A stretch of 64,000 nucleotides of DNA from Acidimicrobiaceae bacterium (lineage in GTDB: Bacteria; Actinomycetota; Acidimicrobiia; Acidimicrobiales; RAAP-2): contig PLHF01000080.1 of NCBI GenBank assembly GCA_003138855.1, forward strand, positions 40,653 through 104,652, read 5' to 3'. The translations under genes and the position numbers were made by a program. This document shows, one piece after another, positions 5,258 through 64,000 of this stretch. Each line of letters begins with the position of its first letter. Position 1 is the first letter of the stretch. Under the pieces are notes generated by a model. That model did no database searches and was not told the DNA's origin. It was given only the letters and a program-made list of their open reading frames with translations.

Positions 5258-7495
5258 GTGAGCCGATCACTTCGCCATCCGTTCCGCGGCTCGCGGCGGT
5301 TCCTCCGCACGGAGTCCGACCGCCGTCCCAACCGCAAGAAGGTCAAGCAGCCGAAGATGCGCCAGAGCCGCTTCTCGGTGGAGGCGATGCTCGACGCGCC
5401 GGACACCACCGATTCCCGGCCCGGCCTGCGACTGCGCATCACCGGCCTGGTGGTGGTCGGCCTGTTCGCCCTGCTCGGGCTGCGATTGTGGACGCTGACG
5501 GTACTGCAGGCGCCGGCGGCCGCCCAGGCCGTCACGGCCAACCAGATCCGTGTGGTCTCGGTCGCCCCCACCCGGGGGCTCGTCCTCGACCGGTACGGGA
5601 ACCCGCTGGTGAACAACGTGGTCACCCAGCAGATCACCCTGTCCCGGGTGACCGCCCAACAGGATCCGGCGGTGGTCGGCCGGCTGGCGGCACTGATCGG
5701 CCAGACCACGACGCAGCTCGACGCCACCGTCGCCGACACCCGGTACAGCCTCTACAAGCCGGTGCCGGTCCTGTCCGACGCCCCGCTGTCCGACATCCTC
5801 TACATCAGGGAGCACCAGTCCGAGTTCCCCGGGGTGTCGTCGGTGCAGACCACCCAGCGCAACTATCCCCAGCTGGAGCTGCCCGGCCCAGCGCAGACCG
5901 GCTATCCGGCAGCCCAGACCCTGGGGTACGTGGGGACCATCAACGCCGCCGAGCTCAAGTCACGGGCGGCACAGGGGTACCAGGCCGGGGACGCCTTCGG
6001 CCAGTCGGGCCTCGAGTACCAGTACGAGTCGGAGCTGCGTGGCGTGCCGGGCCAGCAGCAGCTCGAGGTGAATCCGGTGGGTCAGGTGGTGGGCGCGCTG
6101 AAGACGACGCCGGCCGCGCCGGGCGACAACATCGTCACCAACATCGACACCAACCTCCAGCAGGTGGCCGACAACGCCCTGGCCACCCAGATCCTCACTC
6201 TCCGCAAGGGGCTCGATCCGCAGTGCAACAACAACACCGGGTGCTACCCGGCGGCCACCGGCGGCGCGGTGATCGTGATGAGCCCCCAGACCGGCGCCGT
6301 GTACGCCATGTCGTCCTACCCCACCTACAACCCGTCGATCTGGGTGGGGGGCATCACCACCGCCCAGTACGCGGCCCTGTCCGACCCGGCCAACAACGAG
6401 CCCCTGATCAACCGGGCCATCGGCGGCGTCTACACACCCGGGTCCACCTTCAAGCTCAACACCGCCACCGCCGCCCTCGGCTCGGGGCTGTGGACCCCGA
6501 ACGAGTTCTATGACGACTCGGGGACCTTCAAGATCCCCGGCTGCCAGTACAACAGCACGTCGTGCAACCTCCACAACAGCGAGGGCGACGGCGCGCTCGG
6601 CTCCCTCGACATCTCCACCGCGCTGACCGTGTCCAGCGACGACTTCTTCTACAACCTGGGCGCCCTCTTCTACGACCAGCGGGCCACGTACGGGCAGACC
6701 CCCATCCAGGACCAGGCGGCCCAGTACAGCCTGGGTGAGCTGACCGGGATCGACCTTCCCGGCGAGGTCCAGGGCCGGGTGGACAGCCAGGCCGAGCGGC
6801 TCAAGCTGCACGCGCTCAGCCCCACCGGGTTCCCCAACACCACCTGGTACACCGGTGACAACGTGCAGATGGCCTTCGGCCAGGGGGCCACGGCCATCAC
6901 CCCGATCGAGCAGGCCGTGGCCTACTCCACCTTCGCCAACGGCGGCACCCGCTACGCCCCCCAGGTGGCAGCGGCCATCGTCTCACCCTCGGGGCAGGTG
7001 GTGAAGCGCTTCACCCCACAGGTCACCGGGCACGTGAACCTCCCTCCGGCGACGTACCAGGCCCTGCTGGCCGGGTTCACCGGCGTGGTCCAGAACCCGA
7101 GGGGGACGGCTTACGGGACCTTCCAGGGCCTCAACTTCCCCGGCGGCCTGGCCGGCAAGACCGGCACCGCCGACACCGTCCCCGGCAAGGAGCCCACCGC
7201 CTGGTTCATCGGGTTCGGCCCCACGGCAAATCCTCAGTACGTGGTGGTCTGCGTCATCGACCAGGCCGGTTACGGCGCCACCGCGGCAGCACCGGTGGTG
7301 CGGGACATCTACAGCTACCTGGCCACCCATCCGGTCACCGCCCCGGGCATCCCCCCCGGGCAGCAGATCGTCCAGTCCACGGGCCCGATCCCGCTGCCGA
7401 CCACGGCTCCCGCGGCGCCCACGGCCCCCGCTGCGACGAAGACCACAACGACCACGGCGGCGGCCACCGCCTCCCCGGCGGGATCCGCCGGCTGA
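5258..7495 (+). CDS. mrdA: Penicillin-binding protein 2 (elongation transpeptidase)
   Basis: Class B PBP that cross-links lateral-wall peptidoglycan. The 745-residue protein has a basic cytoplasmic tail (residues 1-60), one membrane helix around residues 64-84, a dimerisation domain, and a transpeptidase domain with SxxK as STFK (Ser about 396), an SSDD segment where the second motif is expected, and KTG in GLAGKTGTAD (Lys about 634). The C-terminus is a Thr/Ala/Pro-rich tail. GTG at 5258 is used because the frame upstream overlaps mreD with shadow sequence. The usual downstream partner rodA is absent; a radical-SAM gene follows. Confidence 0.93.
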   Translation: MSRSLRHPFRGSRRFLRTESDRRPNRKKVKQPKMRQSRFSVEAMLDAPDTTDSRPGLRLRITGLVVVGLFALLGLRLWTLTVLQAPAAAQAVTANQIRVVSVAPTRGLVLDRYGNPLVNNVVTQQITLSRVTAQQDPAVVGRLAALIGQTTTQLDATVADTRYSLYKPVPVLSDAPLSDILYIREHQSEFPGVSSVQTTQRNYPQLELPGPAQTGYPAAQTLGYVGTINAAELKSRAAQGYQAGDAFGQSGLEYQYESELRGVPGQQQLEVNPVGQVVGALKTTPAAPGDNIVTNIDTNLQQVADNALATQILTLRKGLDPQCNNNTGCYPAATGGAVIVMSPQTGAVYAMSSYPTYNPSIWVGGITTAQYAALSDPANNEPLINRAIGGVYTPGSTFKLNTATAALGSGLWTPNEFYDDSGTFKIPGCQYNSTSCNLHNSEGDGALGSLDISTALTVSSDDFFYNLGALFYDQRATYGQTPIQDQAAQYSLGELTGIDLPGEVQGRVDSQAERLKLHALSPTGFPNTTWYTGDNVQMAFGQGATAITPIEQAVAYSTFANGGTRYAPQVAAAIVSPSGQVVKRFTPQVTGHVNLPPATYQALLAGFTGVVQNPRGTAYGTFQGLNFPGGLAGKTGTADTVPGKEPTAWFIGFGPTANPQYVVVCVIDQAGYGATAAAPVVRDIYSYLATHPVTAPGIPPGQQIVQSTGPIPLPTTAPAAPTAPAATKTTTTTAAATASPAGSAG

Positions 7496-7536
7496 GCCCG
7501 GGAGCGGGCCGGTCCCGATCCCCCCGACGGCCCGCC

Positions 7537-7542
7537 TAGGAT
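7537..7542 (+). promoter_or_regulatory. -10 box TAGGAT of the radical-SAM gene
   Basis: TAGGAT ends nine bases before the ATG at 7552. The same hexamer precedes obgE and proS at 6-8 bases, supporting a leaderless-type promoter. No good -35 box is seen. Confidence 0.4.
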
Positions 7543-7551
7543 GAAGGGGAG

Positions 7552-9639
7552 ATGGAGTCTCTCTGGCCACAGGTCGAGCCGCTGTTGGCCCAGGTCACGA
7601 AGCCGGCACGGTATATCGGCGGGGAGCTGGGCGCCCAGGCGGCCGAGCATGGGCGCTGGGCGGTGTCGTGGCTGCTCGTCTACCCCGACACCTACGAGAT
7701 CGGGCTGCCCAATCAGGGCCTGCAGATCCTCTACGAGATCCTCAACGAGCGTGACGACGCGGTCGCCGAGCGGTCGTACGCCCCGTGGGTGGACATGGAG
7801 GCGGCCATGCGTGCCGCCGAGGTGCCGCTCTTCTCGCTCGAGAACCACCTTCCGGCTCGCGCCTTCGACATCCTGGCCTTCAACCTGTCGGCCGAGCTGG
7901 TGTACACCAACGTCCTCAACCTGATCGACCTGGCCGCGGTGCCCCTCCACGGTTCGGACCGATCGGCGGACGACCCCATCGTGCTGGCCGGCGGTCACTG
8001 CGCGTTCAACCCCGAGCCCCTGTCCGACTTCGTGGACTGCTTCGTGCTGGGCGACGGGGAGGAAGTGGTCAGCGAGATCAACGAGGTCGTGGCCGAGCAC
8101 CGTTCGAAGGGGCGGCACTCCACCGACCACCCGGCCGGGCTCCGGTCGAGGGATGCGCTGCTGCGCGCCCTTTCACGGGTCCCCGGCGTCTACGTGCCGG
8201 CGTGCTACGAGGCCCGTTACGGACCAGCTCCGGCAGAGTCCGGATCGGGGGAATCGACGACCCCGCCGGCCCCTGCCGGGCCGGGCCGTCTTTCGGCCAC
8301 CTACCCCCGCTTCGCCGAGACCCCCGCACGGGTGGAGAAGCGCACCATCGCCGACCTGGGCCAGTGGCCGTACCCGAGGCGGCAGCTGGTGCCTCTCATC
8401 GAGGTGGTGCACGACCGTCTGAACGTCGAGCTGTTCCGCGGGTGCACCCGGGGGTGCAGGTTCTGCCAGGCCGGGATGATCACCCGCCCGGTGCGCGAGC
8501 GGCCGGCCGAGCAGGTCCGCACCATGGTGCAGGCCGGCCTGGCCCGGACCGGCTACGACGACGTGGCCCTGACCTCGCTGTCCAGTGCCGACTACTCGGG
8601 CATCGAGGAGACGGTGACCTCGATCATCGACGACCCGTCCTGCTCGGGACAGGTGTCGGTCAGCCTTCCCAGCCTGCGGGTGGACGCATTCACCGTGGGC
8701 ACCGCCGCCCAGATCCAACGGGTGAGGCGGACCGGACTGACCTTCGCTCCCGAGGGCGGTACCTGGCGGATGCGCCAGGTGATCAACAAGCTGATCCGCG
8801 AAGAGGATCTCTACGCCGCGGTCGACGCCGCCTTCAGCCAGGGGTGGAAGCGGGTCAAGCTCTACTTCCTGATCGGGCTGCCCACCGAGACCGACGAGGA
8901 CACCCTGGGCATCGTGGCGCTGGCCAAGCAGTGCGTGGCCATCGGCCGCCAATACCACAAGGGGGTCACGGTCACCGCCTCGGTCGGCGGCTTCGTCCCC
9001 AAGGTCCAGACCCCGTTCCAGTGGTTCGGGCAGAACACGATCGAGGAGCTGACCCGCAAGATCCACCTGCTGCGCGATGCCGCCCGCCCGGTACGGGGCC
9101 TCACCATCCGGTGGCACGACCCCAGGGCCACGGCGGCAGAGGGCATCGTCAGCCGCGGCGACCGCCGGATGGGAGCGGTCATCGAGCAGGTGTGGCGCAA
9201 CGGCGGGACCTTCCAGGAGTGGTCCGAGCACTTCGACATGCGGCTGTGGACCGATGCCCTGGCCGCGCACGGGATGTCCCTCGAGGGCACCGTTTACCGC
9301 CACCGGACCGAGGGCGAGGTGTTGCCCTGGGACCACCTCTCCGCCGGCCTGCACCGCGACTTCCTGTGGCAGGACTGGCTCGATGCACTGGCCAACCACG
9401 GCCTGGAGGACTGTCGGTGGACCCCCTGCTACGACTGCGGGGCGTGCACCGGTTTCGGGGTCGAGCACGTGGTGGCCTCGGCGGTGCCTCCGGCAGGCGG
9501 CAGCCAGGGCACCGGCCAGGATCTCTCGACCGGAGGTCAGGTGCCGGTACGATTCCTCAGCACGGCGCCGTCCGGCGCCGTTTCGGCCACCGGGCCGGAG
9601 GAGCATGCGGCCGTGCGGGTCGGGGAGGGGAGAGGCTGA
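7552..9639 (+). CDS. Radical SAM protein with B12-binding-like N-terminal domain (TIGR03960 type)
   Basis: The 695-residue protein has an N-terminal region like that of B12-binding radical-SAM enzymes (VYPDTYEIGLPNQGLQILYEI and LAGGHCAFNPEPLSDFVD). The central radical-SAM core has the 4Fe-4S motif CTRGCRFCQ around residues 300-308, followed by SLPSLRVDAFTVG. The C-terminal part has a CYDCGACTGFG cluster. This arrangement, immediately followed by the small DUF2344 protein, is the conserved TIGR03960/TIGR03936 pair, found upstream of rne/rng and rplU in many actinobacteria. The exact reaction is not established to my knowledge; RNA or ribosome modification has been suggested by context. Confidence 0.88.
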   Translation: MESLWPQVEPLLAQVTKPARYIGGELGAQAAEHGRWAVSWLLVYPDTYEIGLPNQGLQILYEILNERDDAVAERSYAPWVDMEAAMRAAEVPLFSLENHLPARAFDILAFNLSAELVYTNVLNLIDLAAVPLHGSDRSADDPIVLAGGHCAFNPEPLSDFVDCFVLGDGEEVVSEINEVVAEHRSKGRHSTDHPAGLRSRDALLRALSRVPGVYVPACYEARYGPAPAESGSGESTTPPAPAGPGRLSATYPRFAETPARVEKRTIADLGQWPYPRRQLVPLIEVVHDRLNVELFRGCTRGCRFCQAGMITRPVRERPAEQVRTMVQAGLARTGYDDVALTSLSSADYSGIEETVTSIIDDPSCSGQVSVSLPSLRVDAFTVGTAAQIQRVRRTGLTFAPEGGTWRMRQVINKLIREEDLYAAVDAAFSQGWKRVKLYFLIGLPTETDEDTLGIVALAKQCVAIGRQYHKGVTVTASVGGFVPKVQTPFQWFGQNTIEELTRKIHLLRDAARPVRGLTIRWHDPRATAAEGIVSRGDRRMGAVIEQVWRNGGTFQEWSEHFDMRLWTDALAAHGMSLEGTVYRHRTEGEVLPWDHLSAGLHRDFLWQDWLDALANHGLEDCRWTPCYDCGACTGFGVEHVVASAVPPAGGSQGTGQDLSTGGQVPVRFLSTAPSGAVSATGPEEHAAVRVGEGRG

Positions 9640-9640
9640 G

Positions 9641-10468
9641 ATGCGCATTCGTTTCCGCTTCGCCAAACTCGGCAAGATCCGCTTCACCAGCCAACGGGAC
9701 GTCGCCCGAATGTGGGAACGGGCCCTCCGTCGGGCCGAGCTTCCGCTGGCCTACACCGAGGGGTTCTCCCCCCGGCCCCAGCTCAGCTTCGGCCTGGCCC
9801 TGCCCACCGGGTGCGAGTCGCTGGCCGAGTACGTCGACGTGGCCCTCGACGCGACCAGGGCGGCGGGCATCGAGGCGGCGTCACTGCCGGCCCTGCTCAC
9901 CCCGCTGCTGCCCGAGGGCATCGACGTCGAAGAGGCGGTGCCGGTGGAGAAGGGCCCCGGCTCCCTGCAGCAGCTGGTGACGTCGTGCTCGTGGACCATG
10001 CGCTTCACCGGGGTCTCGAAGGAGGAGCTGCGCCACCAGGTGGAGTCCCTCCTCTCCGCACCCTCGGTTCCCATCGTGCGAGAGCGGAAGGGCCGCCAGG
10101 TGCACGACGACCTCCGGCCCTCGGTCCTGGTTCTGGCCGTCTCCGACGACCGGGCGGTGGTGGCCGGTCGTCGGGACGACACCGGCCGATCGGTGGGGGT
10201 GGTGGCCGAGCTGGCCACCCAACCCCGTGGGGTCCGCCCCATCGAGTTGGTGCGTGGGTTGATCGCAGTCTCGGGGGGCCCAGCGTTTCGGCCGTTGGAA
10301 GGGCAGGCCGCCGACGGTGACAGGCCAGTGGGAATCCCGGTGCTTGACCGGGCTTGTAGGACACAACAGTGGATCGAGCGCGACGGCATCCGTGAGGAGC
10401 CCCTCCAACCACGGGGGATCCCGGCGGAGACCCACCGCGCCGTGCACGCCCTGGAGCGTGCGTCTTGA
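9641..10468 (+). CDS. Radical SAM-linked protein, DUF2344 / TIGR03936 family
   Basis: The 275-residue product begins with the family-typical MRIRFRFAKLGKIRFTSQRD and has LPLAYTEGFSPRPQLSFGLALPTG. It starts one base after the stop of the radical-SAM gene and is surely co-transcribed and likely a functional partner. The C-terminal part from about residue 200 (GGPAFRPLEGQAADGD onward) is less conserved and polar. The family partner role is inferred from neighbourhood; no catalytic motif is visible. Confidence 0.88.
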   Translation: MRIRFRFAKLGKIRFTSQRDVARMWERALRRAELPLAYTEGFSPRPQLSFGLALPTGCESLAEYVDVALDATRAAGIEAASLPALLTPLLPEGIDVEEAVPVEKGPGSLQQLVTSCSWTMRFTGVSKEELRHQVESLLSAPSVPIVRERKGRQVHDDLRPSVLVLAVSDDRAVVAGRRDDTGRSVGVVAELATQPRGVRPIELVRGLIAVSGGPAFRPLEGQAADGDRPVGIPVLDRACRTQQWIERDGIREEPLQPRGIPAETHRAVHALERAS

Positions 10469-10489
10469 GCAGTCTTGGAAGGGAATTCG

Positions 10490-12439
10490 ATGTCAGATGC
10501 AACAGCCGGTCAGCCGGTGGGGGTCCCCGGAGAGCCAGGGTCGTCGACCGCGGCGTCCCGGCAGACCCCGTCACAGAAGAGCGCAGCGACTGTGGAGGGA
10601 TCGGCCGGTAGCGGCCCGACCCCGGGCGGCGGCGGACCCGGCGGCCAGAGTCGCAGGCGCCGCGGATCGCGGGGCGGACGGGGCCGCGGCAGGTCGGGTG
10701 CCCCCGGGGCCCAGGGCCAGACCCCCGGAGAGGAGGGCCCCGAGGGCGCGGCGGTCGCTTTCGCCCCGGAGTCCCCGGAGTCCCCGGAGTCCCCGGCAGC
10801 GGCACCGACCACGGCTGTGCCCCGGACGCCGGACGCCCCGCCGCTCGTAGCCGCAGAGCGGCCCAAGATCGGTGACAGCCGCCCGGCCCGGCCCACGGTG
10901 GCCGGCGTGGGGGCGGAATCGACCAGCGGCAACGGTGGCGGCACGCGGACCCGCCAACGCCCGGCACCGGCCAACGGGCGTGCCTCCGCGGCCGCCGCGG
11001 GTGGGGGAGCCGAAGGAAGAGGGAGTGGCAGCACCAGGGAGGCGGGCACCTCTGCGCCCAAGGGCGCGAATGCTCCGGGCCGGGCGGCTCCGGGTGGAAC
11101 GCCGCGACCCGAGGCAGGCGCCCGGGCCGAAGGCCGCCGCGGGGGCCGAGAGCGCCGGGGCAAGGCCGTGGGCCGCTACATGATCTGCGTGCATGTGCGG
11201 CCCGAGATGACCCAGATCGCGCTGCTCGAAGGCCGCACGCTGGTCGAGCACTACATCTCGCGGGCCTCCGACGACGCCACCCAGATCGACGGCAACATCT
11301 ACCGGGGGCGGGTCCAGAACGTCCTGCCGGGCATGGAGGCCGCCTTCATCGACATCGGCACACCCAAGAACGCCGTGCTCTACCACGGTGACGTCCGCTA
11401 CGACGTCGACGACATCGAGTCCGCCAACGCCTCGGGCCAACCGAGGATCGAGCAGCTGCTCCGACCCGGGCAGACCATCCTGTGCCAGGTCACCAAGAAC
11501 CCGATCGGCGCCAAGGGGGCACGACTCACCCAGGAGGTCTCCCTCCCCGGTCGCTTCGTGGTCCTGGTCCCCAACAGCACCGCCTACGGCATCTCCAAGC
11601 GGCTCGAGGACGCCGAGCGCAAGCGGCTGCGCCGGATCGTCGATGCCATCCGTCCCCAAGGACACGGGGTGATCGTCCGGACGGCTGCGGCAGGGGCCAG
11701 CGCGGAGGAGCTGGAGCACGACGTCGAGCGCCTGGTGGGCCAGTGGGAGGCGATCGCCGCCGACTCCCTCAGGGGGCACGGTCCCGCCCTCCTCTACCGT
11801 GAACCGGCCATTGCCGTCCGGGTCATCCGCGAGGAGTTGAACCGTGAGTACCGGGCGGTGGTCATCGACGACCGGGCACTCTACGAGCAGGTTCGCGAGT
11901 ACGTCGGCGCGGTCAACCCCGAGCTGGCCGACCGGGTGGAGTACTTCGACCCCGAGGTCGAGGCGCTTCCGGTCTTCGAGCGGTTCCACGTGCACGAGCA
12001 GCTCCACAAGGCGCTCGACCGCAAGGTCTACCTGCCCTCGGGCGGCTCCTTGGTGATCGATCGCACCGAGGCCCTCACCGTGATCGACGTGAACACCGGT
12101 AAGAACGTGGGAACCACCAACCTGGAGGAGACGGTCTACCGGAACAACCTGGAGGCGGCAGAGGAGGTGGCCCGCCAACTGCGGCTTCGGGACATCGGGG
12201 GGATCATCGTGATCGACTTCATCGACATGGAGATCCGGGAGAACCGCGACAAGGTGGGGAGCGCCCTCCGGGCCGCACTGGCCAGGGACAAGACCCGTAC
12301 CCAGGTCTTCGACATCTCGGAGCTCGGCTTGGTGGAGATGACCCGGAAGCGGGTGTCGGAGGGCCTCATCGAGTCGATGTCCACCACCTGCGAGGTCTGC
12401 CAGGGGCGTGGAATAGTCTTCGGCGACCCGGAGCTGTAG
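10490..12439 (+). CDS. rng: Ribonuclease E/G family endoribonuclease
   Basis: Single-strand-specific endoribonuclease acting in rRNA processing and mRNA decay. In the 649-residue product the first 225 or so residues are a disordered Gly/Arg/Ala/Pro-rich tract, including PESPESPESPAA. The catalytic part then has an S1 domain (NIYRGRVQNVLPGMEAAFIDIG), the Mg-binding aspartates in LTVIDVNTGKN and IIVIDFIDME, and the zinc-link CEVCQGRG near the end. ATG at 10490 is preferred because GGAAGGG ends about six bases upstream; a TTG at 10475 in the same frame would add five residues but overlaps that ribosome site. Confidence 0.92.
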   Translation: MSDATAGQPVGVPGEPGSSTAASRQTPSQKSAATVEGSAGSGPTPGGGGPGGQSRRRRGSRGGRGRGRSGAPGAQGQTPGEEGPEGAAVAFAPESPESPESPAAAPTTAVPRTPDAPPLVAAERPKIGDSRPARPTVAGVGAESTSGNGGGTRTRQRPAPANGRASAAAAGGGAEGRGSGSTREAGTSAPKGANAPGRAAPGGTPRPEAGARAEGRRGGRERRGKAVGRYMICVHVRPEMTQIALLEGRTLVEHYISRASDDATQIDGNIYRGRVQNVLPGMEAAFIDIGTPKNAVLYHGDVRYDVDDIESANASGQPRIEQLLRPGQTILCQVTKNPIGAKGARLTQEVSLPGRFVVLVPNSTAYGISKRLEDAERKRLRRIVDAIRPQGHGVIVRTAAAGASAEELEHDVERLVGQWEAIAADSLRGHGPALLYREPAIAVRVIREELNREYRAVVIDDRALYEQVREYVGAVNPELADRVEYFDPEVEALPVFERFHVHEQLHKALDRKVYLPSGGSLVIDRTEALTVIDVNTGKNVGTTNLEETVYRNNLEAAEEVARQLRLRDIGGIIVIDFIDMEIRENRDKVGSALRAALARDKTRTQVFDISELGLVEMTRKRVSEGLIESMSTTCEVCQGRGIVFGDPEL

Positions 12440-57826: not shown

Positions 57827-59364
57827 CGGTGATGCGCCGGCTGACCGGTCTGGACGGGGCGTTTCTCTCCCTGGAGTCGCCGACCACCCATCTCCACATC
57901 CTCGGCGCGCTGATCTTCGATCCGAGCGGCGTGGCCGGCGGGGTGGAGTTCGGCGACATCCGGGAGATGGTGGCCGAACGGGTGCACCTGGTGCCCCCCT
58001 TCCGGATGCGGATGCTCGAGGTCCCCTTCGGGCTTCAGCACCCCTCGATGGTCGACGACCCGGAGTTCGACATCGACTACCACGTCCGACGGACCAGCCT
58101 CCCGCGCCCGGGACGCCGACGGGAGCTGGCCGCGCTGGTGGCCGATCTGGCCTCCCGGCCACTCGACCGACGGAAGCCACTCTGGGAGTTCCACGTGGTG
58201 GAAGGGTTGGAGCACGGCCATCTCGCCATGGTGTCCAAGGTGCACCATGCCATCATCGACGGCGTTTCCGGGGCGGAAGTGATGGCGGCGTTCTTCGACC
58301 TGTCCCCGGAACCGGTGCCCCGCGCGCTCTTCGGGAGGGACACCGCCGGTCGGCAGCCCGGTCAGTCCGGCGGAGCGACAGCCCCTTCCGGGGCTGCGTT
58401 CGGCAGCCCGGTCCGTTCGGCCGATCCCACCTGGTCTCCGCCCCCGCTGCCCGGTGAGCTGGACCGGTGGCGCCAGGTGATCGGCGCGCTCCCCAGCCAG
58501 GTCGACGCGGTGGCCCGGACCGTGACCCGCACCGTGACGACGGCGCGGACCCTGAGCGGTCGCAACCGGGAGCTGAACGGCACCCTGCCGCCCTCACCCT
58601 TCGAGGCCCCCCGGACCTCGATCAACCGGGCGATCTCGCCCCACCGCCGGGTGGCGTTCGCCGAACTGCCGCTCGCCGACATCCGCCGGGTGGGGGAGGT
58701 CCTCGGGGGCACGACCAACGACATCGTGCTCGCCTGCACCGCCGGTGCCATGCGGAGGTTCTTTACCGAGCGGGACGAGGAGCTCGAGACCTCGCTGGTG
58801 GCAATGGTGCCGGTGTCGGTACGGAGCGAGGACGAACAGGGGGCGTTGGGCAACCGGGTGTCGGGCATGCTGACGTCCCTGGCGACCGGGGTCGAGGATC
58901 CCGTTGCCCGCCTGCGCCACATCAGCGACGGGATGCGGGCGGCCAAGGAGCAGAGCCGGTCGATCGGAGGGGAGGTGTTCGCGGCCTGGGCCCAGGCCAC
59001 CTTCCCCGCCGTGGCCACCCGGCTGTCGCGGCTGGTGACCAACTTCCGGGTGTTCGATCACGTGTCCCCGATGTTCAACCTGATCGTGTCCAATGTGCCC
59101 GGACCGGACTTTCCCCTCTACATGGCCGGTGCCCGCATGGTGGCCATGTACCCGCTGGGCCCGGTCATGGAGGGCGTAGGGCTCAACGTCACGGTGTTCT
59201 CCTACCTCGACACCATCTACGTCGGGATCCAGGCGTGCTGGGACCTGGTGCCGGACATCGCCACCGTCGCCGACGGCATGCAGGAGTCGCTGGGTGAGCT
59301 GGTGCGGGAGGCGGTCCGCCGGGACCGGCCGGTGCCGTGGTGGCACGCCGAACTGCCGGCCTGA
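57823..59364 (+). CDS. Wax ester synthase / diacylglycerol acyltransferase family protein
   Basis: Uses acyl-CoA to esterify alcohols or diacylglycerol for storage lipid. The 513-residue protein has RRLTGLDGAFLSLESPTTHLHI, the catalytic HHxxxDG as KVHHAIIDGVSG (His141, His142, Asp146), TSINRAISPHRRVAF, NDIVLACTAGAMRRF and SNVPGPDFPLYMAGARM. GTG 57823 overlaps the dut stop; ATG 57832 is an alternative. Typical of storage-lipid-forming actinobacteria. Confidence 0.9.
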   Translation: MTVMRRLTGLDGAFLSLESPTTHLHILGALIFDPSGVAGGVEFGDIREMVAERVHLVPPFRMRMLEVPFGLQHPSMVDDPEFDIDYHVRRTSLPRPGRRRELAALVADLASRPLDRRKPLWEFHVVEGLEHGHLAMVSKVHHAIIDGVSGAEVMAAFFDLSPEPVPRALFGRDTAGRQPGQSGGATAPSGAAFGSPVRSADPTWSPPPLPGELDRWRQVIGALPSQVDAVARTVTRTVTTARTLSGRNRELNGTLPPSPFEAPRTSINRAISPHRRVAFAELPLADIRRVGEVLGGTTNDIVLACTAGAMRRFFTERDEELETSLVAMVPVSVRSEDEQGALGNRVSGMLTSLATGVEDPVARLRHISDGMRAAKEQSRSIGGEVFAAWAQATFPAVATRLSRLVTNFRVFDHVSPMFNLIVSNVPGPDFPLYMAGARMVAMYPLGPVMEGVGLNVTVFSYLDTIYVGIQACWDLVPDIATVADGMQESLGELVREAVRRDRPVPWWHAELPA

Positions 59365-59479
59365 CCGAAGCCGGCACCGTCCACGACCTGGTCCGATCGG
59401 TCGGCGTAGGCCTCGGGCGGCACAGCACCTGACGTGGTTCGCAAGCCGGATGTCGTTCGGGAAATGGCCCGTCTGCTGC

Positions 59480-59485
59480 TAGGGT
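59480..59485 (+). promoter_or_regulatory. -10 box TAGGGT of the tRNA-Gly gene
   Basis: TAGGGT ends 11 bases before the mature 5' end of the tRNA, so a short 5' leader is removed by RNase P. The TTCGGG at 59457-59462 is only a weak -35 candidate. Confidence 0.35.
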
Positions 59486-59496
59486 GAGTGCCTTAC

Positions 59497-59572
59497 GCGG
59501 ACGTGGCTCAGCTGGTAGAGCACAACCTTGCCAAGGTTGGGGTCGCGGGTTCGAATCCCGTCGTCCGCTCCA
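59497..59572 (+). tRNA. tRNA-Gly (anticodon GCC)
   Basis: The 76 bases fold into a full cloverleaf: a 7-bp acceptor GCGGACG with CGTCCGC, D arm GCTC with GAGC, a 5-bp anticodon stem CAACC with GGTTG around TTGCCAA (anticodon GCC), and T arm with TTCGAAT. CCA is encoded (59570-59572). It reads GGC/GGU glycine codons. Confidence 0.97.
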
Positions 59573-59733: not shown

Positions 59734-61311
59734 ATGGACACGGCGACCATGACATTCGCGGCCCTCGCCGAGGCGATTCGGGCTCGACTGCCGGACGTGC
59801 GGGGTCGATGCCTGGTGGTCGGCGTGGACGGGATGTCGGGGGCAGGCAAGAGCAGCTTCGCCCGGCAGCTCGCCACCGAGCTGTCCGCTGCCTTTCTCAA
59901 CACCGACGAGCTGGTCCCTGGTTGGGACGGCTTGGCGGCATCGCTCGACGTCGTGGTCGAGCGGGTCCTGGTCCCGTTGGCCCTGGGAGAGCCCGGCCGG
60001 TGGCAGCGCTACGACTGGGTCGAGGGCCGGCCGGCCGAGTGGGTCGAGGTCCCGTTGTGCGACATCCTGGTCCTCGAGGGATGCTGCGTGGGAACGCCAC
60101 ATGTGGCGGACCATCTCTCCTACCTGGTGTGGATCGAAACGCCCGAGGACGAGCGCCGCCGCCGGCTCCGTGGCCGCAACGACTGGGAGGAGTACGCCGC
60201 CTTCTTCGACCGCTGGGCTGCACAGGAGACAGCTCTGCAGGCCGGATCGGGCACCATGGCCCGCGCCGACCTGGTCGTGGACAACAGCGAGGCGCAGAGG
60301 CGGAGGCAGGCAGCGTGGGGGGACCGGCTCGCCTATGTGTCCCGCCCTTCGAAAGAGCGAGCCCGAGGGCCCCGGCAGAGTCGGCCGGGGGGGGTGAGCC
60401 CACCGACGAGTCCGGAGCACGAGCCCGGAGGAAGGAAGAGACCCGTGTCCCTGCTCCCGCCACTAGTCGGTGCCGGCCAGCTGTACGACGCCCTCGGCGA
60501 TCAACACCTGCGGCTCTTCGACGCCACCGTCTTCCTGCGCCGGGCTGTCCAGGGAGGTCCGTACACCGTCGAGAGCGGTGCCTCGGGCTACGAGGAGTCG
60601 CACATCCCCACCGCGGCGTTCGCCGACATCCCCGGAGAGCTCTCGGACCCGGCGTCGCCCTTCCCGTTCACCGTGCCCGACGCCGAACGGTTTGCCGCCG
60701 CCATCGGAAGGCTCGGAGTGGGCGACGACAGCCACGTGGTGGCCTACGCGCAGGAGTCGCCGATGTGGGCCACCCGGCTGTGGTGGCTCCTCAGGTACTT
60801 CGGTCATGACGACGTGAGCGTCCTCGACGGGGGACTGGTCGCCTGGAAGGCGTTCGGTGGCGCGCTGGAGCGTGGAGCGCGCCACTACGAGGAAGCGAGT
60901 TTCACCCCCCGCACGCAGCCCGGACGCCTGGCGACCCTCGACGAGGTGAAGGCAGTGGCCGAGGGCGCCCCCTTCCATCTGGTGAACGCACTGCCGGCAG
61001 GGGCGTTCCGCGGAGAGGGGCCCTGTGCCTATTCGCGCCCCGGTCGGATCCCCTCCAGCGTCAACGTGCCGTGGTCGGACCTGGTGGACCCGGACACCAA
61101 CCGGTTCAGGGCACCGGATCGGCTGTCGGCGGCGTTCGCCGATTCCGGCGTCGAGGAGGCCGAACCGGTGATCGCCTATTGCGGCGGTGGGATCTCGGCG
61201 ACGGTGGACCTCTTCGCCCTCGAGCTGACCGGGCGCAGCGACGGCCGCCTCTATGACGGGTCGCTCACCGAGTGGAGCGCGGACCCGGGGTTGCCGCTGG
61301 TCACCGGCTGA
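59734..61311 (+). CDS. P-loop nucleoside-kinase-like domain joined in frame to a two-domain sulfurtransferase (rhodanese)
   Basis: One open frame of 525 residues. Residues 1-205 resemble a uridine-kinase-type P-loop protein (GVDGMSGAGKSSFARQLA at 30-47, LNTDELVPGWDGL, VLEGCCVGTPHV). Residues about 206-240 are a polar Arg/Pro linker. The rest is a two-domain rhodanese with LFDATVFLR, ESHIPTAAFADIP, SVLDGGLVAWK, IPSSVNVPW and the active loop YCGGGISATV (Cys483). The loop resembles the CGxGxT type of 3-mercaptopyruvate sulfurtransferases more than CRxGxT. ATG 59734 follows GAGGAGG. No stop codon separates the halves, but a strong ribosome site and GTG at 60445 could start a 288-residue sulfurtransferase of normal length, so two products are possible. 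Confidence 0.8.
   Translation: MDTATMTFAALAEAIRARLPDVRGRCLVVGVDGMSGAGKSSFARQLATELSAAFLNTDELVPGWDGLAASLDVVVERVLVPLALGEPGRWQRYDWVEGRPAEWVEVPLCDILVLEGCCVGTPHVADHLSYLVWIETPEDERRRRLRGRNDWEEYAAFFDRWAAQETALQAGSGTMARADLVVDNSEAQRRRQAAWGDRLAYVSRPSKERARGPRQSRPGGVSPPTSPEHEPGGRKRPVSLLPPLVGAGQLYDALGDQHLRLFDATVFLRRAVQGGPYTVESGASGYEESHIPTAAFADIPGELSDPASPFPFTVPDAERFAAAIGRLGVGDDSHVVAYAQESPMWATRLWWLLRYFGHDDVSVLDGGLVAWKAFGGALERGARHYEEASFTPRTQPGRLATLDEVKAVAEGAPFHLVNALPAGAFRGEGPCAYSRPGRIPSSVNVPWSDLVDPDTNRFRAPDRLSAAFADSGVEEAEPVIAYCGGGISATVDLFALELTGRSDGRLYDGSLTEWSADPGLPLVTG
60427..60447 (+). promoter_or_regulatory. Internal ribosome site and GTG start for a separate sulfurtransferase
   Basis: A purine-rich stretch (60427-60440) containing AAGGAAG ends near a GTG at 60445, with about six bases of spacing, in the frame of the joined ORF. 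Starting here gives a 288-residue protein, the usual length of two-domain sulfurtransferases. Confidence 0.5.
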
Positions 61312-61365: not shown

Positions 61366-62169
61366 TCACGGCTGACTGCCGGCGAACTCGCCCCACGCGC
61401 TCATCGCCGCGTTCAGCTCGTGGCGTAGTCGCTGCTCGACGGCCAGGAACCGGGTGTCCTCCTTCTGGGCAGCGGTGCGGGGCCTCGGCAGGTCGACATC
61501 GATGACCGAGGTGACCCGACCCGGACGGGGGCTCATGACGTAGATGCGATCGGAGAGGAACACCGCTTCGGAGATGTCGTGGGTGACGAGGAGGACGGTG
61601 GCGCCCACCTCGGACCACACCTGGTTGAGCCACTGCTGCAGGTCGGCCCGGGTGATCCCGTCGAGTGCGCCGAACGGCTCGTCGAGCAGCAGGAGGGGGC
61701 GGTCGGCTATCACGGTGCGCAGGAAGGCCACCCTCTGGCGCATGCCTCCTGACAGCTGCCACGGCCAGGCCCGGGTGAACTCGCCCAAGCCGAACCGTTG
61801 GAGCAGCGGGAGCGCTCGGCGCCGGGCCTCGTCTCGTCGGACACCTTGGAGCTCGAGCGACAGGCCGACGTTGTCGATGACACGCCGCCAGTCGAGCAGG
61901 GCATCGTGCTGGGGCATGTAGGCGCTCGCGCCGAGGCGGTCACAGAGTTCCTCCCCGTTGATCAGCACGTGGCCGCCGCTGGCCCTTTCGAGACCGGCGA
62001 CGATGTTGAACAGGGTGCTCTTCCCGCAGCCGCTCGGTCCGATCAGCGAGACGAACTCGCCGTCCCGGGCCACGAGGTCGACCCCGTCCACGGCCACGAC
62101 GTCTCCGTCGTTGCCCGAAAAGCGCTTCGCCACGCCCCGCAGCTCGAGGTTCGCTCCGCGAACGGTCAT
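61366..62169 (-). CDS. ABC transporter ATP-binding protein, NitT/TauT (ThiZ-like) family
   Basis: The 267-residue protein has Walker A LIGPSGCGKST (residues 42-52), the Q loop in YMPQHDALLDWR, signature LSGGMRQRVAF, Walker B LLLLDEPFGALD and the H loop VLLVTHDISEAVF. ATG 62169 overlaps the permease stop (ATGA). With the permease and the divergent THI5/NMT1-like binding protein it forms one importer; thiamine-pyrimidine precursors, sulfonates or nitrate are the family substrates. Confidence 0.9.
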   Translation of the reverse strand: MTVRGANLELRGVAKRFSGNDGDVVAVDGVDLVARDGEFVSLIGPSGCGKSTLFNIVAGLERASGGHVLINGEELCDRLGASAYMPQHDALLDWRRVIDNVGLSLELQGVRRDEARRRALPLLQRFGLGEFTRAWPWQLSGGMRQRVAFLRTVIADRPLLLLDEPFGALDGITRADLQQWLNQVWSEVGATVLLVTHDISEAVFLSDRIYVMSPRPGRVTSVIDVDLPRPRTAAQKEDTRFLAVEQRLRHELNAAMSAWGEFAGSQP

Positions 62170-63044
62170 GGCTTCGGCCTCCAGGGCATCGCCAGGCGTT
62201 CGATGAGCCCGACGATGGCGAACAGGGCGAGGGTGAGGATGGCAATGACGAAGACCGCGCCGAGGACCAGGTCGGTCCGGATCGGAGCGGCGCGGATCGC
62301 CGTCGTCATGTAGACACCGAGACCCTGTTGGGCTCCGACGAACTCCGCCACGATGGCGGCGCTGTAGGCGTAGGTGACTGAGATCTTGAGGCCCGTGAAG
62401 AAGTGGGGAAGGGCGCTCGGGAAGCGGACTCTCCGGAGGAGCTGGAACCGGTTGGCCCGCATGGTGCGCAGCAGGTTCATGGCATCCGGATCCGCCGAGG
62501 CCAGTCCCTGCACCAGCCCGACGGAGATCGGAAAGAAGCTGAACAGGGCGACCAGCACGATCTTGGGAACCAGCCCGAAGCCCCACCACACGAGGACGAG
62601 CGGGGCGAGTGCGATGATCGGGACCGTCTGAGAGGCCACGATGATCGGGTACAGGCTCCCTCGTACGGGTCGGAAGGAGTCGATGGAGACCGCAAACACC
62701 ACCCCGACGATGACCGCGAGCGCCATCCCGAGCACCGCTTCCTCGGTGGTGACTCCGATGGCCGGCCAGATGTTGACCCGGTCGTCCCACGTGGAGTGGG
62801 CGATGAGGTTCGGCCCGGGGAGCAGTTGGGGGTCGACGTGCCGCACGGTGACGAAGAGCTGCCAGAGCGCCAACACGGCGGCGATCACCAGCAGCGGCGG
62901 GACGACGGTCCGGACGCGCCGACCGAACCCCCTCTGCCGCCCAGCGGGGGACGGTCCGGGCGTCGGCGCAAGCGGGGACGCAGGTGGAACGGTGCCCACT
63001 GCTTCCGCCAGGGCGGCGTCGTCGGTGCGGACAAGGGCGCTCAT
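62166..63044 (-). CDS. ABC transporter permease, NitT/TauT (ThiX-like) family
   Basis: The 292-residue protein has a Pro-rich N-terminus (residues 1-45), then about six membrane helices, with the EAA loop region near LLRTMRANRFQLLRRVRFPS and ALPHFFTGLKISVTYAYSAA. It ends four bases into the ATPase gene. ATG 63044 has a CATAAT box six bases upstream on the minus strand. Confidence 0.9.
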   Translation of the reverse strand: MSALVRTDDAALAEAVGTVPPASPLAPTPGPSPAGRQRGFGRRVRTVVPPLLVIAAVLALWQLFVTVRHVDPQLLPGPNLIAHSTWDDRVNIWPAIGVTTEEAVLGMALAVIVGVVFAVSIDSFRPVRGSLYPIIVASQTVPIIALAPLVLVWWGFGLVPKIVLVALFSFFPISVGLVQGLASADPDAMNLLRTMRANRFQLLRRVRFPSALPHFFTGLKISVTYAYSAAIVAEFVGAQQGLGVYMTTAIRAAPIRTDLVLGAVFVIAILTLALFAIVGLIERLAMPWRPKP

Positions 63045-63154: not shown

Positions 63155-63189
63155 CATACCCCCCAGCTGACTAGCGAATGGAACAACCG

Positions 63190-64000
63190 ATGTCACGACG
63201 CCTCCGTGTCCTTGCCTCGCCCCTGCTCCTCGTCGTCCTGCTGGGCGCCCTGGTCGCAGCCTGCGGGTCCAGCGCCTCCTCGGCTTCGTCCACCTCCGCT
63301 CCGTCGACCACCTCGACCTCGTCCGCCAGGGGGCTCCAGCCCCTGCGCATCGCACTGGACTGGACCCCGAACGTCGACTTCCTGGGCATCTATGTTGCCA
63401 TCAAGAACGGCTACTTCACCCAGGAGGGGATCAATCCGGTGATCATCCCCTACTCGGGCACCGCAGGGGAGACGCTGATCCAGTCCGGCAAGACGGATCT
63501 CGCCTTCACCTACCCCCCCAACATCCCGGCCTATCGGGCCTCGGGGCTGCAGTACCGGGCCGTCGCCGGCCTCAGCCAGGAGAACACGATCGCGCTCGCC
63601 GTCCTCCAGTCGTCTCCCTACACCTCGCCCGCCCAGCTGAGCGGGAAGCTCTACGGCGGCTTCGGGGTCCCCAGTGACCCGCCGATCATCAAGTCGATCT
63701 TCGAGGCTGCCGGTGTGAAGGACCCCGTCTACCACGAGGTCGTGCTCAACGGCTCGGCCTACCAGGCCCTGGCCGCCAAGCGGGTGGCCTACACCACGAT
63801 GTTCGGCGGCATCGACGACGTGACCGCCGAGCTCCAGGGCGCCAAGTTGCGTCTGTTCCCGATCCGGAACTACCTCGGAGCCGCCGCCGGCTTCCCCGAT
63901 GACTCGCTGGCTGCGAGCGACAAGGAGATCAGCACCGACCCGACCTTGCTCCGGCACGGCCTGGCTGCGCTCTCGGAGGGGTACATCTATGCGGCACAGC
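63190..64000 (+). CDS. ABC transporter substrate-binding lipoprotein, NMT1/THI5 (ThiY-like) family, 3' end outside window
   Basis: The frame is open from ATG 63190 to the last base, giving 270 codons. Residues 1-24 are a lipoprotein signal with lipobox LVAAC; a Ser/Thr-rich spacer follows. The mature part has LRIALDWTPNVDFLGIYVAI, KNGYFTQEGINPVIIPYSG, GKTDLAFTYPPNIPAYRASG and GGFGVPSDPPIIKSIFEAAG. The DWTPN and YVA...GYF pattern is typical of ThiY/THI5 proteins that bind thiamine pyrimidine precursors, but other NMT1-type ligands cannot be excluded. It is divergent from its ATPase and permease genes. Confidence 0.88.
   Translation, partial: MSRRLRVLASPLLLVVLLGALVAACGSSASSASSTSAPSTTSTSSARGLQPLRIALDWTPNVDFLGIYVAIKNGYFTQEGINPVIIPYSGTAGETLIQSGKTDLAFTYPPNIPAYRASGLQYRAVAGLSQENTIALAVLQSSPYTSPAQLSGKLYGGFGVPSDPPIIKSIFEAAGVKDPVYHEVVLNGSAYQALAAKRVAYTTMFGGIDDVTAELQGAKLRLFPIRNYLGAAAGFPDDSLAASDKEISTDPTLLRHGLAALSEGYIYAAQ

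What the first reader, a model, noticed from the sequence alone, without database searches (positions are those of the whole stretch)
59734..61311. In-frame fusion of a P-loop kinase-like domain with a two-domain sulfurtransferase, with a possible internal start
There is no stop codon between a uridine-kinase-like domain and a complete rhodanese of the CGGG-loop type. The internal ribosome site and GTG at 60445 would yield a sulfurtransferase of exactly normal length. The locus could thus make a 525-residue fusion plus a 288-residue free enzyme. I do not know this domain pair from described proteins. A link between nucleotide phosphorylation and sulfur transfer (for example tRNA thiolation or cofactor synthesis) is speculative.
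Basis: partly seen in the sequence, partly recalled or inferred. Interest (0 to 1): 0.52.

Follow-up and report, generated by a model that had tools for sequence, protein, structure and literature searches.

The report
Joined kinase and sulfurtransferase genes
Two genes that sit near each other in distantly related bacteria, a small-molecule kinase and a sulfur-transferring enzyme, run together here without a stop signal, probably through a recent one-step change in the DNA between them or a one-base assembly error.

Summary
The open frame is real in the assembly: 525 codons, 59734-61311, with a P-loop kinase (residues 1-204), a linker, and a complete two-domain rhodanese that can start at GTG 60445. 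The stop-free linker is not remarkable. At this G+C content 33 codons escape a stop with P about 0.59, and its synonymous codon use looks non-coding. A run of eight G (60387-60394) lies directly before a TGA in the +1 frame; one base fewer would end the kinase there. No relative is fused: kinase and rhodanese occur together in 4 other genomes, always as separate genes. Those genomes reveal the context: a cluster of NMT1-type ABC transporter, NtaA/DmoA-type monooxygenase, kinase and sulfurtransferase, in some lineages with hydroxyethylthiazole kinase ThiM. The window keeps transporter, kinase and sulfurtransferase, beside a tRNA-Gly. I read it as two co-functional neighbours joined recently, or by a one-base error, not as an established bifunctional enzyme. 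The link between the two enzymes is supported by gene neighbourhood. tRNA thiolation is not supported; handling of an imported sulfur or thiazole-like compound is the better guess.

The parts
59497..59572 (+). tRNA-Gly (GCC), boundary of the variable region
   Evidence: ARAGORN, Rfam; wax ester synthase gene followed by tRNA-Gly(GCC) in 10 of 12 genus relatives examined
59734..60345 (+). P-loop small-molecule kinase domain (residues 1-204)
   Evidence: NF005115 E 3e-36 below cut-off; AF2 pLDDT 81, last strand 198-203; Foldseek to pantothenate, uridine and phosphoribulokinases
59830..59853 (+). Walker A motif GMSGAGKS
60346..60444 (+). Linker, 33 codons, non-coding-like codon use, predicted disordered
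   Evidence: codon test, pLDDT <50 for residues 191-222 and 224-232
60387..60394 (+). G8 homopolymer
   Evidence: G/C runs of 8 or more are 2 per 64 kb against 14.6 expected
60395..60397 (+). TGA in the +1 frame; would end the kinase if one upstream base were absent
60427..60436 (+). Shine-Dalgarno-like GGAGGAAGGA before GTG 60445
   Evidence: sequence
60445..61311 (+). Complete two-domain rhodanese/3-mercaptopyruvate-type sulfurtransferase with its own possible GTG start
   Evidence: PF00581, NF008557 E 7e-53, closest solved 1urh
61180..61182 (+). Catalytic-loop cysteine codon (C483; C246 of the free enzyme), loop CGGGISA
61366..62169 (-). ABC transporter ATPase (TauB/SsuB-like)
62166..63044 (-). 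ABC transporter permease (TauC/SsuC-like)
63178..64000 (+). NMT1-type substrate-binding lipoprotein, continuing beyond the window; a second NMT1 protein follows outside it

Best explanation
Two neighbouring genes of one conserved cluster, a P-loop small-molecule kinase and a rhodanese/MST-type sulfurtransferase, were brought side by side next to an NMT1-type ABC transporter. Their frames are joined through former intergenic DNA by a recent loss of the kinase stop (one indel or one substitution). The product is a 525-residue chain of two independently folded domains on a disordered tether. The sulfurtransferase very likely is still also made alone from GTG 60445. The two enzymes probably act on the same imported sulfur-containing or thiazole/pyrimidine-like compound: the kinase phosphorylates a hydroxyl group and the sulfurtransferase moves sulfur as an enzyme persulfide. 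Shown: the open frame, the domains, the conserved neighbourhood, the unfused relatives, the non-coding character of the linker. Inferred: that the organism really has this frame, that the internal start is used, the substrate.
For: Open frame. The predicted kinase fold ends at residue 203 and coding-type codon use ends about there: linker syn-score -0.13 against a mean of 0.463 over 393 coding windows, 0.8% as low; 70% of shuffles of the linker score as high. Kinase and rhodanese lie within 3-8 kb as separate genes in Actinocorallia, Actinomadura, a Solirubrobacterales MAG and an Acidimicrobiaceae MAG. The first three also carry the transporter genes, an NtaA/DmoA monooxygenase and a PPOX protein; the fourth carries ThiM and an NCS1 transporter. 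The cluster is absent downstream of the tRNA-Gly in the genus relatives examined.
Against: No reads and no second assembly were available, so a one-base error cannot be excluded. The window genome lacks the monooxygenase and ThiM, so its substrate may differ. No expression data.
Confidence: 0.5

Rival explanations
1. The two genes are separate in the organism. The joined frame is an assembly or population indel, most likely in the G8 tract; with one base fewer the kinase ends at TGA 60395 and an ordinary operon remains.
For: G8 directly before TGA; 106 of 156 one-base deletions in 60289-60444 restore a stop; the linker looks intergenic; the kinase tail would then be 36 residues after VVDN, 33 in the nearest homologue; no fused relative.
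Against: Short-read assemblies seldom err in an 8-base run (general knowledge). 19 of 468 substitutions would also restore a stop, so the G tract need not be involved.
Confidence: 0.33
2. An established bifunctional enzyme, selected for channelling between phosphorylation and sulfur transfer.
For: Conserved neighbourhood of the two genes; a flexible linker of usual length; both domains keep their catalytic motifs.
Against: No fused relative among 152 loci with a rhodanese hit or 281 plasmid records; the linker shows no codon adaptation; an intact start for the free enzyme remains.
Confidence: 0.12
3. A phase-variable or slippage switch: the G8 tract toggles the locus between a fused and a split form.
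For: G8 length and position; long G/C runs are depleted in this window, 2 against 14.6 expected.
Against: A second G8 run (45216) lies in an ordinary gene frame of the window; no length variants were seen.
Confidence: 0.03
4. A tRNA-thiolation or cofactor-sulfuration enzyme.
For: Rhodaneses can serve such pathways (general knowledge).
Against: No thiolation genes among the neighbours that were named; those are uptake and monooxygenase genes. The nearby tRNA-Gly is a conserved boundary in the genus irrespective of this locus.
Confidence: 0.02

Closest known systems
3-mercaptopyruvate sulfurtransferase SseA (1urh)
   Same: Two rhodanese domains, length, active-site cysteine; best solved match E 1.8e-43
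   Different: Loop CGGGISA instead of CGSGVTA (alignment), so the loop serine is glycine; 179.6 bits, below the equivalog cut-off of 250
PRK06547 / NF005115 hypothetical kinase family
   Same: Best family match of the kinase domain, E 3e-36
   Different: 124.4 bits, below the cut-off of 173; its function is not described by the model
Uridine, pantothenate and phosphoribulokinase folds
   Same: Foldseek E 1e-10 to 1e-8 in the rows listed, TM about 0.6; Walker A
   Different: 16-22% identity; curated models TIGR00235 and PF00485 not met
NtaA/DmoA monooxygenase - sulfurtransferase clusters (Agrobacterium pAtLMG292b with ABC genes; Paracoccaceae pLA6_001 with thiM)
   Same: Sulfurtransferase beside an NtaA/DmoA monooxygenase, with ABC genes in one and thiM in the other
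   Different: No NtaA/DmoA monooxygenase or thiM found in the window's genome; no homologue of this kinase found in those two loci

Membership tests
Rhodanese superfamily (PF00581) | Score above gathering cut-off, two domains, C-terminal active-site Cys | tested here: met
   70.4 bits against 22.2, two stretches; Cys483 in CGGGISA
3-mercaptopyruvate sulfurtransferase SseA (NF008557) | Equivalog cut-off 250 bits | tested here: not met
   179.6 bits
3-mercaptopyruvate sulfurtransferase SseA (NF008557) | CGSG loop serine (its role is recalled, no call) | tested here: not met
   Gly in its place in the alignment to 1urh and Gly or Ala in the close clade, CGGGISA or CGAGISA
3-mercaptopyruvate sulfurtransferase SseA (NF008557) | Substrate 3-mercaptopyruvate | not testable with these tools
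   needs an assay
PRK06547 kinase (NF005115) | Equivalog cut-off 173 bits | tested here: not met
   124.4 bits
Uridine kinase (TIGR00235 / PF00485) | Curated cut-offs | tested here: not met
   18.7 against 220.3 bits; 16.1 against 22
P-loop small-molecule kinase fold | Walker A and uridine/pantothenate-kinase-like fold | tested here: met
   GMSGAGKS; Foldseek, on a model built from 4 sequences, pLDDT 81
Established kinase-sulfurtransferase fusion family | Same fusion in relatives | tested here: not met
   none seen besides the window locus: (listings of 22 and 33 were cut)
NtaA/DmoA - thiM - sulfurtransferase cluster | Monooxygenase and thiM present | tested here: not met
   Own genome: no thiM hit, no NtaA/DmoA hit over cut-off

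The most novel reading that the evidence does not exclude
A real bifunctional kinase-sulfurtransferase that makes visible an undescribed uptake-and-salvage pathway for a thiazole- or thiamine-derived sulfur compound, shared in pieces by Actinomycetota and plasmids of Alphaproteobacteria (NMT1 transporter or NCS1 permease, NtaA/DmoA-type monooxygenase, kinase or ThiM, sulfurtransferase).
Probability: 0.15. Interest if true: 0.6.

Novelty: new variant of a known kind. Interest (0 to 1): 0.32.

Why it matters
If the frame is real, it ties together two enzymes whose genes keep company across several lineages and gives a handle on what this sulfurtransferase clade does. The gene cluster itself, more than the fusion, is a testable lead: it predicts that kinase, monooxygenase and sulfurtransferase act in sequence on one imported sulfur compound. 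The G8-before-TGA junction is also a useful caution for calling fusions from open frames in G+C-rich draft genomes.

Tried and rejected
Considered and rejected. tRNA thiolation: no supporting neighbours. Integration by tRNA-Gly site-specific recombination: no exact 13-base copy of the tRNA elsewhere in the 69.7 kb of contig examined. Riboswitch control: Rfam at gathering threshold found only the tRNA in 8 loci. Separate promoter or terminator between the domains: none found by a simple scan that is weak for this G+C content. A THI5-type enzyme for the second NMT1 protein: YWAWD appears where I recall THI5 having CCCFC; the THI5 motif is recalled and the alignments do not settle it. Full-length AlphaFold model: good for the rhodanese, poor for the kinase because the short kinase rows were misaligned in A1, so the kinase was modelled alone. 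Papers: six searches were answered; I saw listings and abstract starts only, and none of the listed titles describes this domain pair or this cluster. Two of the six returned nothing.

Full report
OBSERVATION. The frame 59734-61311 (+) is open for 525 codons. It occurs once in the genome, on a 110-kb contig of a 4.0-Mb, 155-contig assembly. Pfam finds rhodanese twice and a P-loop domain. NCBIfam's best matches are 3-mercaptopyruvate sulfurtransferase NF008557 for residues 245-523 and the hypothetical kinase family NF005115 for residues 22-182, both below their cut-offs. GTG 60445, preceded by GGAGG and AAGGA, gives a 288-residue sulfurtransferase; free relatives are of the same length and start at about the same place.

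IS THE JUNCTION MORE THAN CHANCE? The kinase fold, modelled from four sequences, ends with a strand at 198-203 and loses confidence from 205. Codon-position G+C is 0.73/0.50/0.87 in the kinase, 0.72/0.53/0.87 in the rhodanese, and 0.71/0.77/0.71 over 60340-60444. Synonymous codon use of 60346-60444 is lower than in all but 0.8% of 393 coding windows from 33 genes of the window, and 70% of shuffles of the linker score at least as high. So the linker looks like former intergenic DNA. With its composition, 33 codons lack a stop with probability 0.59; the missing stop is not by itself evidence of a fusion. Eight G (60387-60394) stand directly before a TGA in the +1 frame. G/C runs of eight or more number 2 in the window against 14.6 expected from a first-order model; the other one lies in a frame that reads as an ordinary protein. 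Of 156 one-base deletions in 60289-60444, 106 restore a stop before 60445, as do 19 of 468 substitutions and 20 of 624 insertions. If the TGA ended the kinase, its tail would be 36 residues after VVDN, against 33 in the nearest homologue and about 0-24 in the others read there; this is compatible, not diagnostic.

RELATIVES. No match that joins both domains was listed in the 13 other genus genomes, the 40 relatives, 394 other genomes of the class or 395 of the phylum. These sets overlap, the two largest listings were cut and only three candidates per genome were scored in them. Some rhodanese matches ran on upstream, the furthest to residue 133, none into the P-loop; twelve such stretches or long open frames were fetched and held no kinase hit. 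Of 248 loci held, 152 have a rhodanese hit and 73 a kinase hit; both occur in 10, of which 5 are the window locus itself, 2 are one Acidimicrobiaceae genome, and 3 are Actinocorallia, Actinomadura and a Solirubrobacterales MAG; none of these is fused. In 396 other genomes of the order, 12 have this kinase at E 1e-12 or better, with open frames of 186-362 codons, too short for the fusion. In 281 plasmid records with a match, none covers 80% of the query.

NEIGHBOURHOOD. Downstream of the window gene lie an ABC ATPase and permease on the other strand, then two NMT1-type proteins. The same genes, with an NtaA/DmoA-family monooxygenase (closest solved: dimethyl-sulfide monooxygenase 6ak1) and a PPOX protein, form runs in Actinocorallia and Actinomadura (NMT1 protein, PPOX, kinase, permease, ATPase, monooxygenase, rhodanese) and in the Solirubrobacterales MAG (rhodanese, ATPase, permease, NMT1, two monooxygenases, NMT1, PPOX, kinase). 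Locus L107 has ATPase, permease, NMT1 and kinase without rhodanese, and locus L152 has the run without kinase on a 5-kb contig. In the Acidimicrobiaceae MAG L026 the order is monooxygenase of another family, rhodanese, HAD hydrolase, NCS1 permease, methyltransferase, ThiM (270.8 bits, cut-off 256.4), kinase. A Solirubrobacteraceae MAG (L194) has rhodanese, that monooxygenase, NCS1, methyltransferase and ThiM, with a kinase homologue on another contig. On plasmids, Paracoccaceae carry ntaA-sseA-amidase-unknown-ridA-thiM and Agrobacterium carries sulfurtransferase, binding protein, NtaA/DmoA monooxygenase, ATPase, permease, sulfurtransferase; I looked at three plasmid hits, and the third (Dietzia) shows no such cluster. 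Against a simple transfer of these roles: of the nine genomes with the closest rhodaneses (55-61% identity), four had no convincing kinase match (G885, G886, G887, G888; G887 only E 6e-4), and the window genome has no ThiM hit and no NtaA/DmoA protein over cut-off, only distant relatives.

GENOMIC SETTING. In the genus a wax ester synthase gene is followed within about 0.8 kb by tRNA-Gly(GCC) in 10 of 12 relatives whose stretch I fetched (12 of 13); one contig ends first and one has another tRNA-Gly 2.5 kb away. None of the 12 stretches holds kinase or rhodanese, though several are short. The window cluster is thus an accessory segment beside that tRNA. No exact 13-base copy of the tRNA was found in the contig examined.

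STRUCTURE AND ACTIVE SITES. The kinase model matches pantothenate, uridine-cytidine and phosphoribulokinases (best E 1.4e-10, TM about 0.6, 16-22% identity). The four kinases aligned share Walker A and an RYDW motif. The sulfurtransferase belongs to a clade of ten sequences in hand with PMWA in the first domain and CGGGISA or CGAGISA in the loop; SseA has CGSGVTA there.

MECHANISM. Most likely the locus takes up a compound through the NMT1-type transporter; the kinase phosphorylates it or a product, and the sulfurtransferase handles the sulfur as a cysteine persulfide. Organosulfide handling is suggested by the monooxygenase and the taurine/sulfonate-like transporter; a thiazole or pyrimidine precursor of thiamine is suggested by ThiM, by the NCS1 permease with weak similarity to CytX and by ThiY as a close solved relative of the second NMT1 protein. 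I cannot choose between them. These are inferences from neighbourhood.

VERDICT. A correct observation of an open frame; as a fusion it is lineage-specific, recent or artefactual. The association of the two enzymes is real and the cluster around them deserves study. Papers: six answered searches, listings and abstract starts only, gave no description of the pair or the cluster; this is not a proof of absence from print.

Noticed in passing
L115 (G000:C128) about 540-958, - strand: A second, decayed kinase copy in the same genome: altered P-loop GHSGARKS, frame breaks, and a tandem repeat of a 9-base unit giving WSGWSGWSGWSG at the PGWxGL motif; it lies beside a tRNA-Arg.
   Followed up: partly
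L073 3081-4007; L027 360-1262; L028 267-1169; L192 8446-9348: An NMT1-family protein without an apparent signal peptide, 53-55% identical across the clusters; in the window genome it follows another NMT1 protein that has a lipoprotein-like leader.
   Followed up: partly
L234 (CP031586) 5742-11269; L236 (NZ_CP116691) 5986-11997: Plasmid-borne runs of NtaA/DmoA monooxygenase with sulfurtransferase, one with ridA and thiM, one with two sulfurtransferases and an ABC transporter.
   Followed up: partly
window 57835-59572: Wax ester synthase gene followed by tRNA-Gly(GCC) is conserved in the genus while what follows differs; a candidate site for accessory genes.
   Followed up: partly
G000:C49:4356-5186: A second two-domain sulfurtransferase in the same genome, 39% identical to the window domain.
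   Followed up: no
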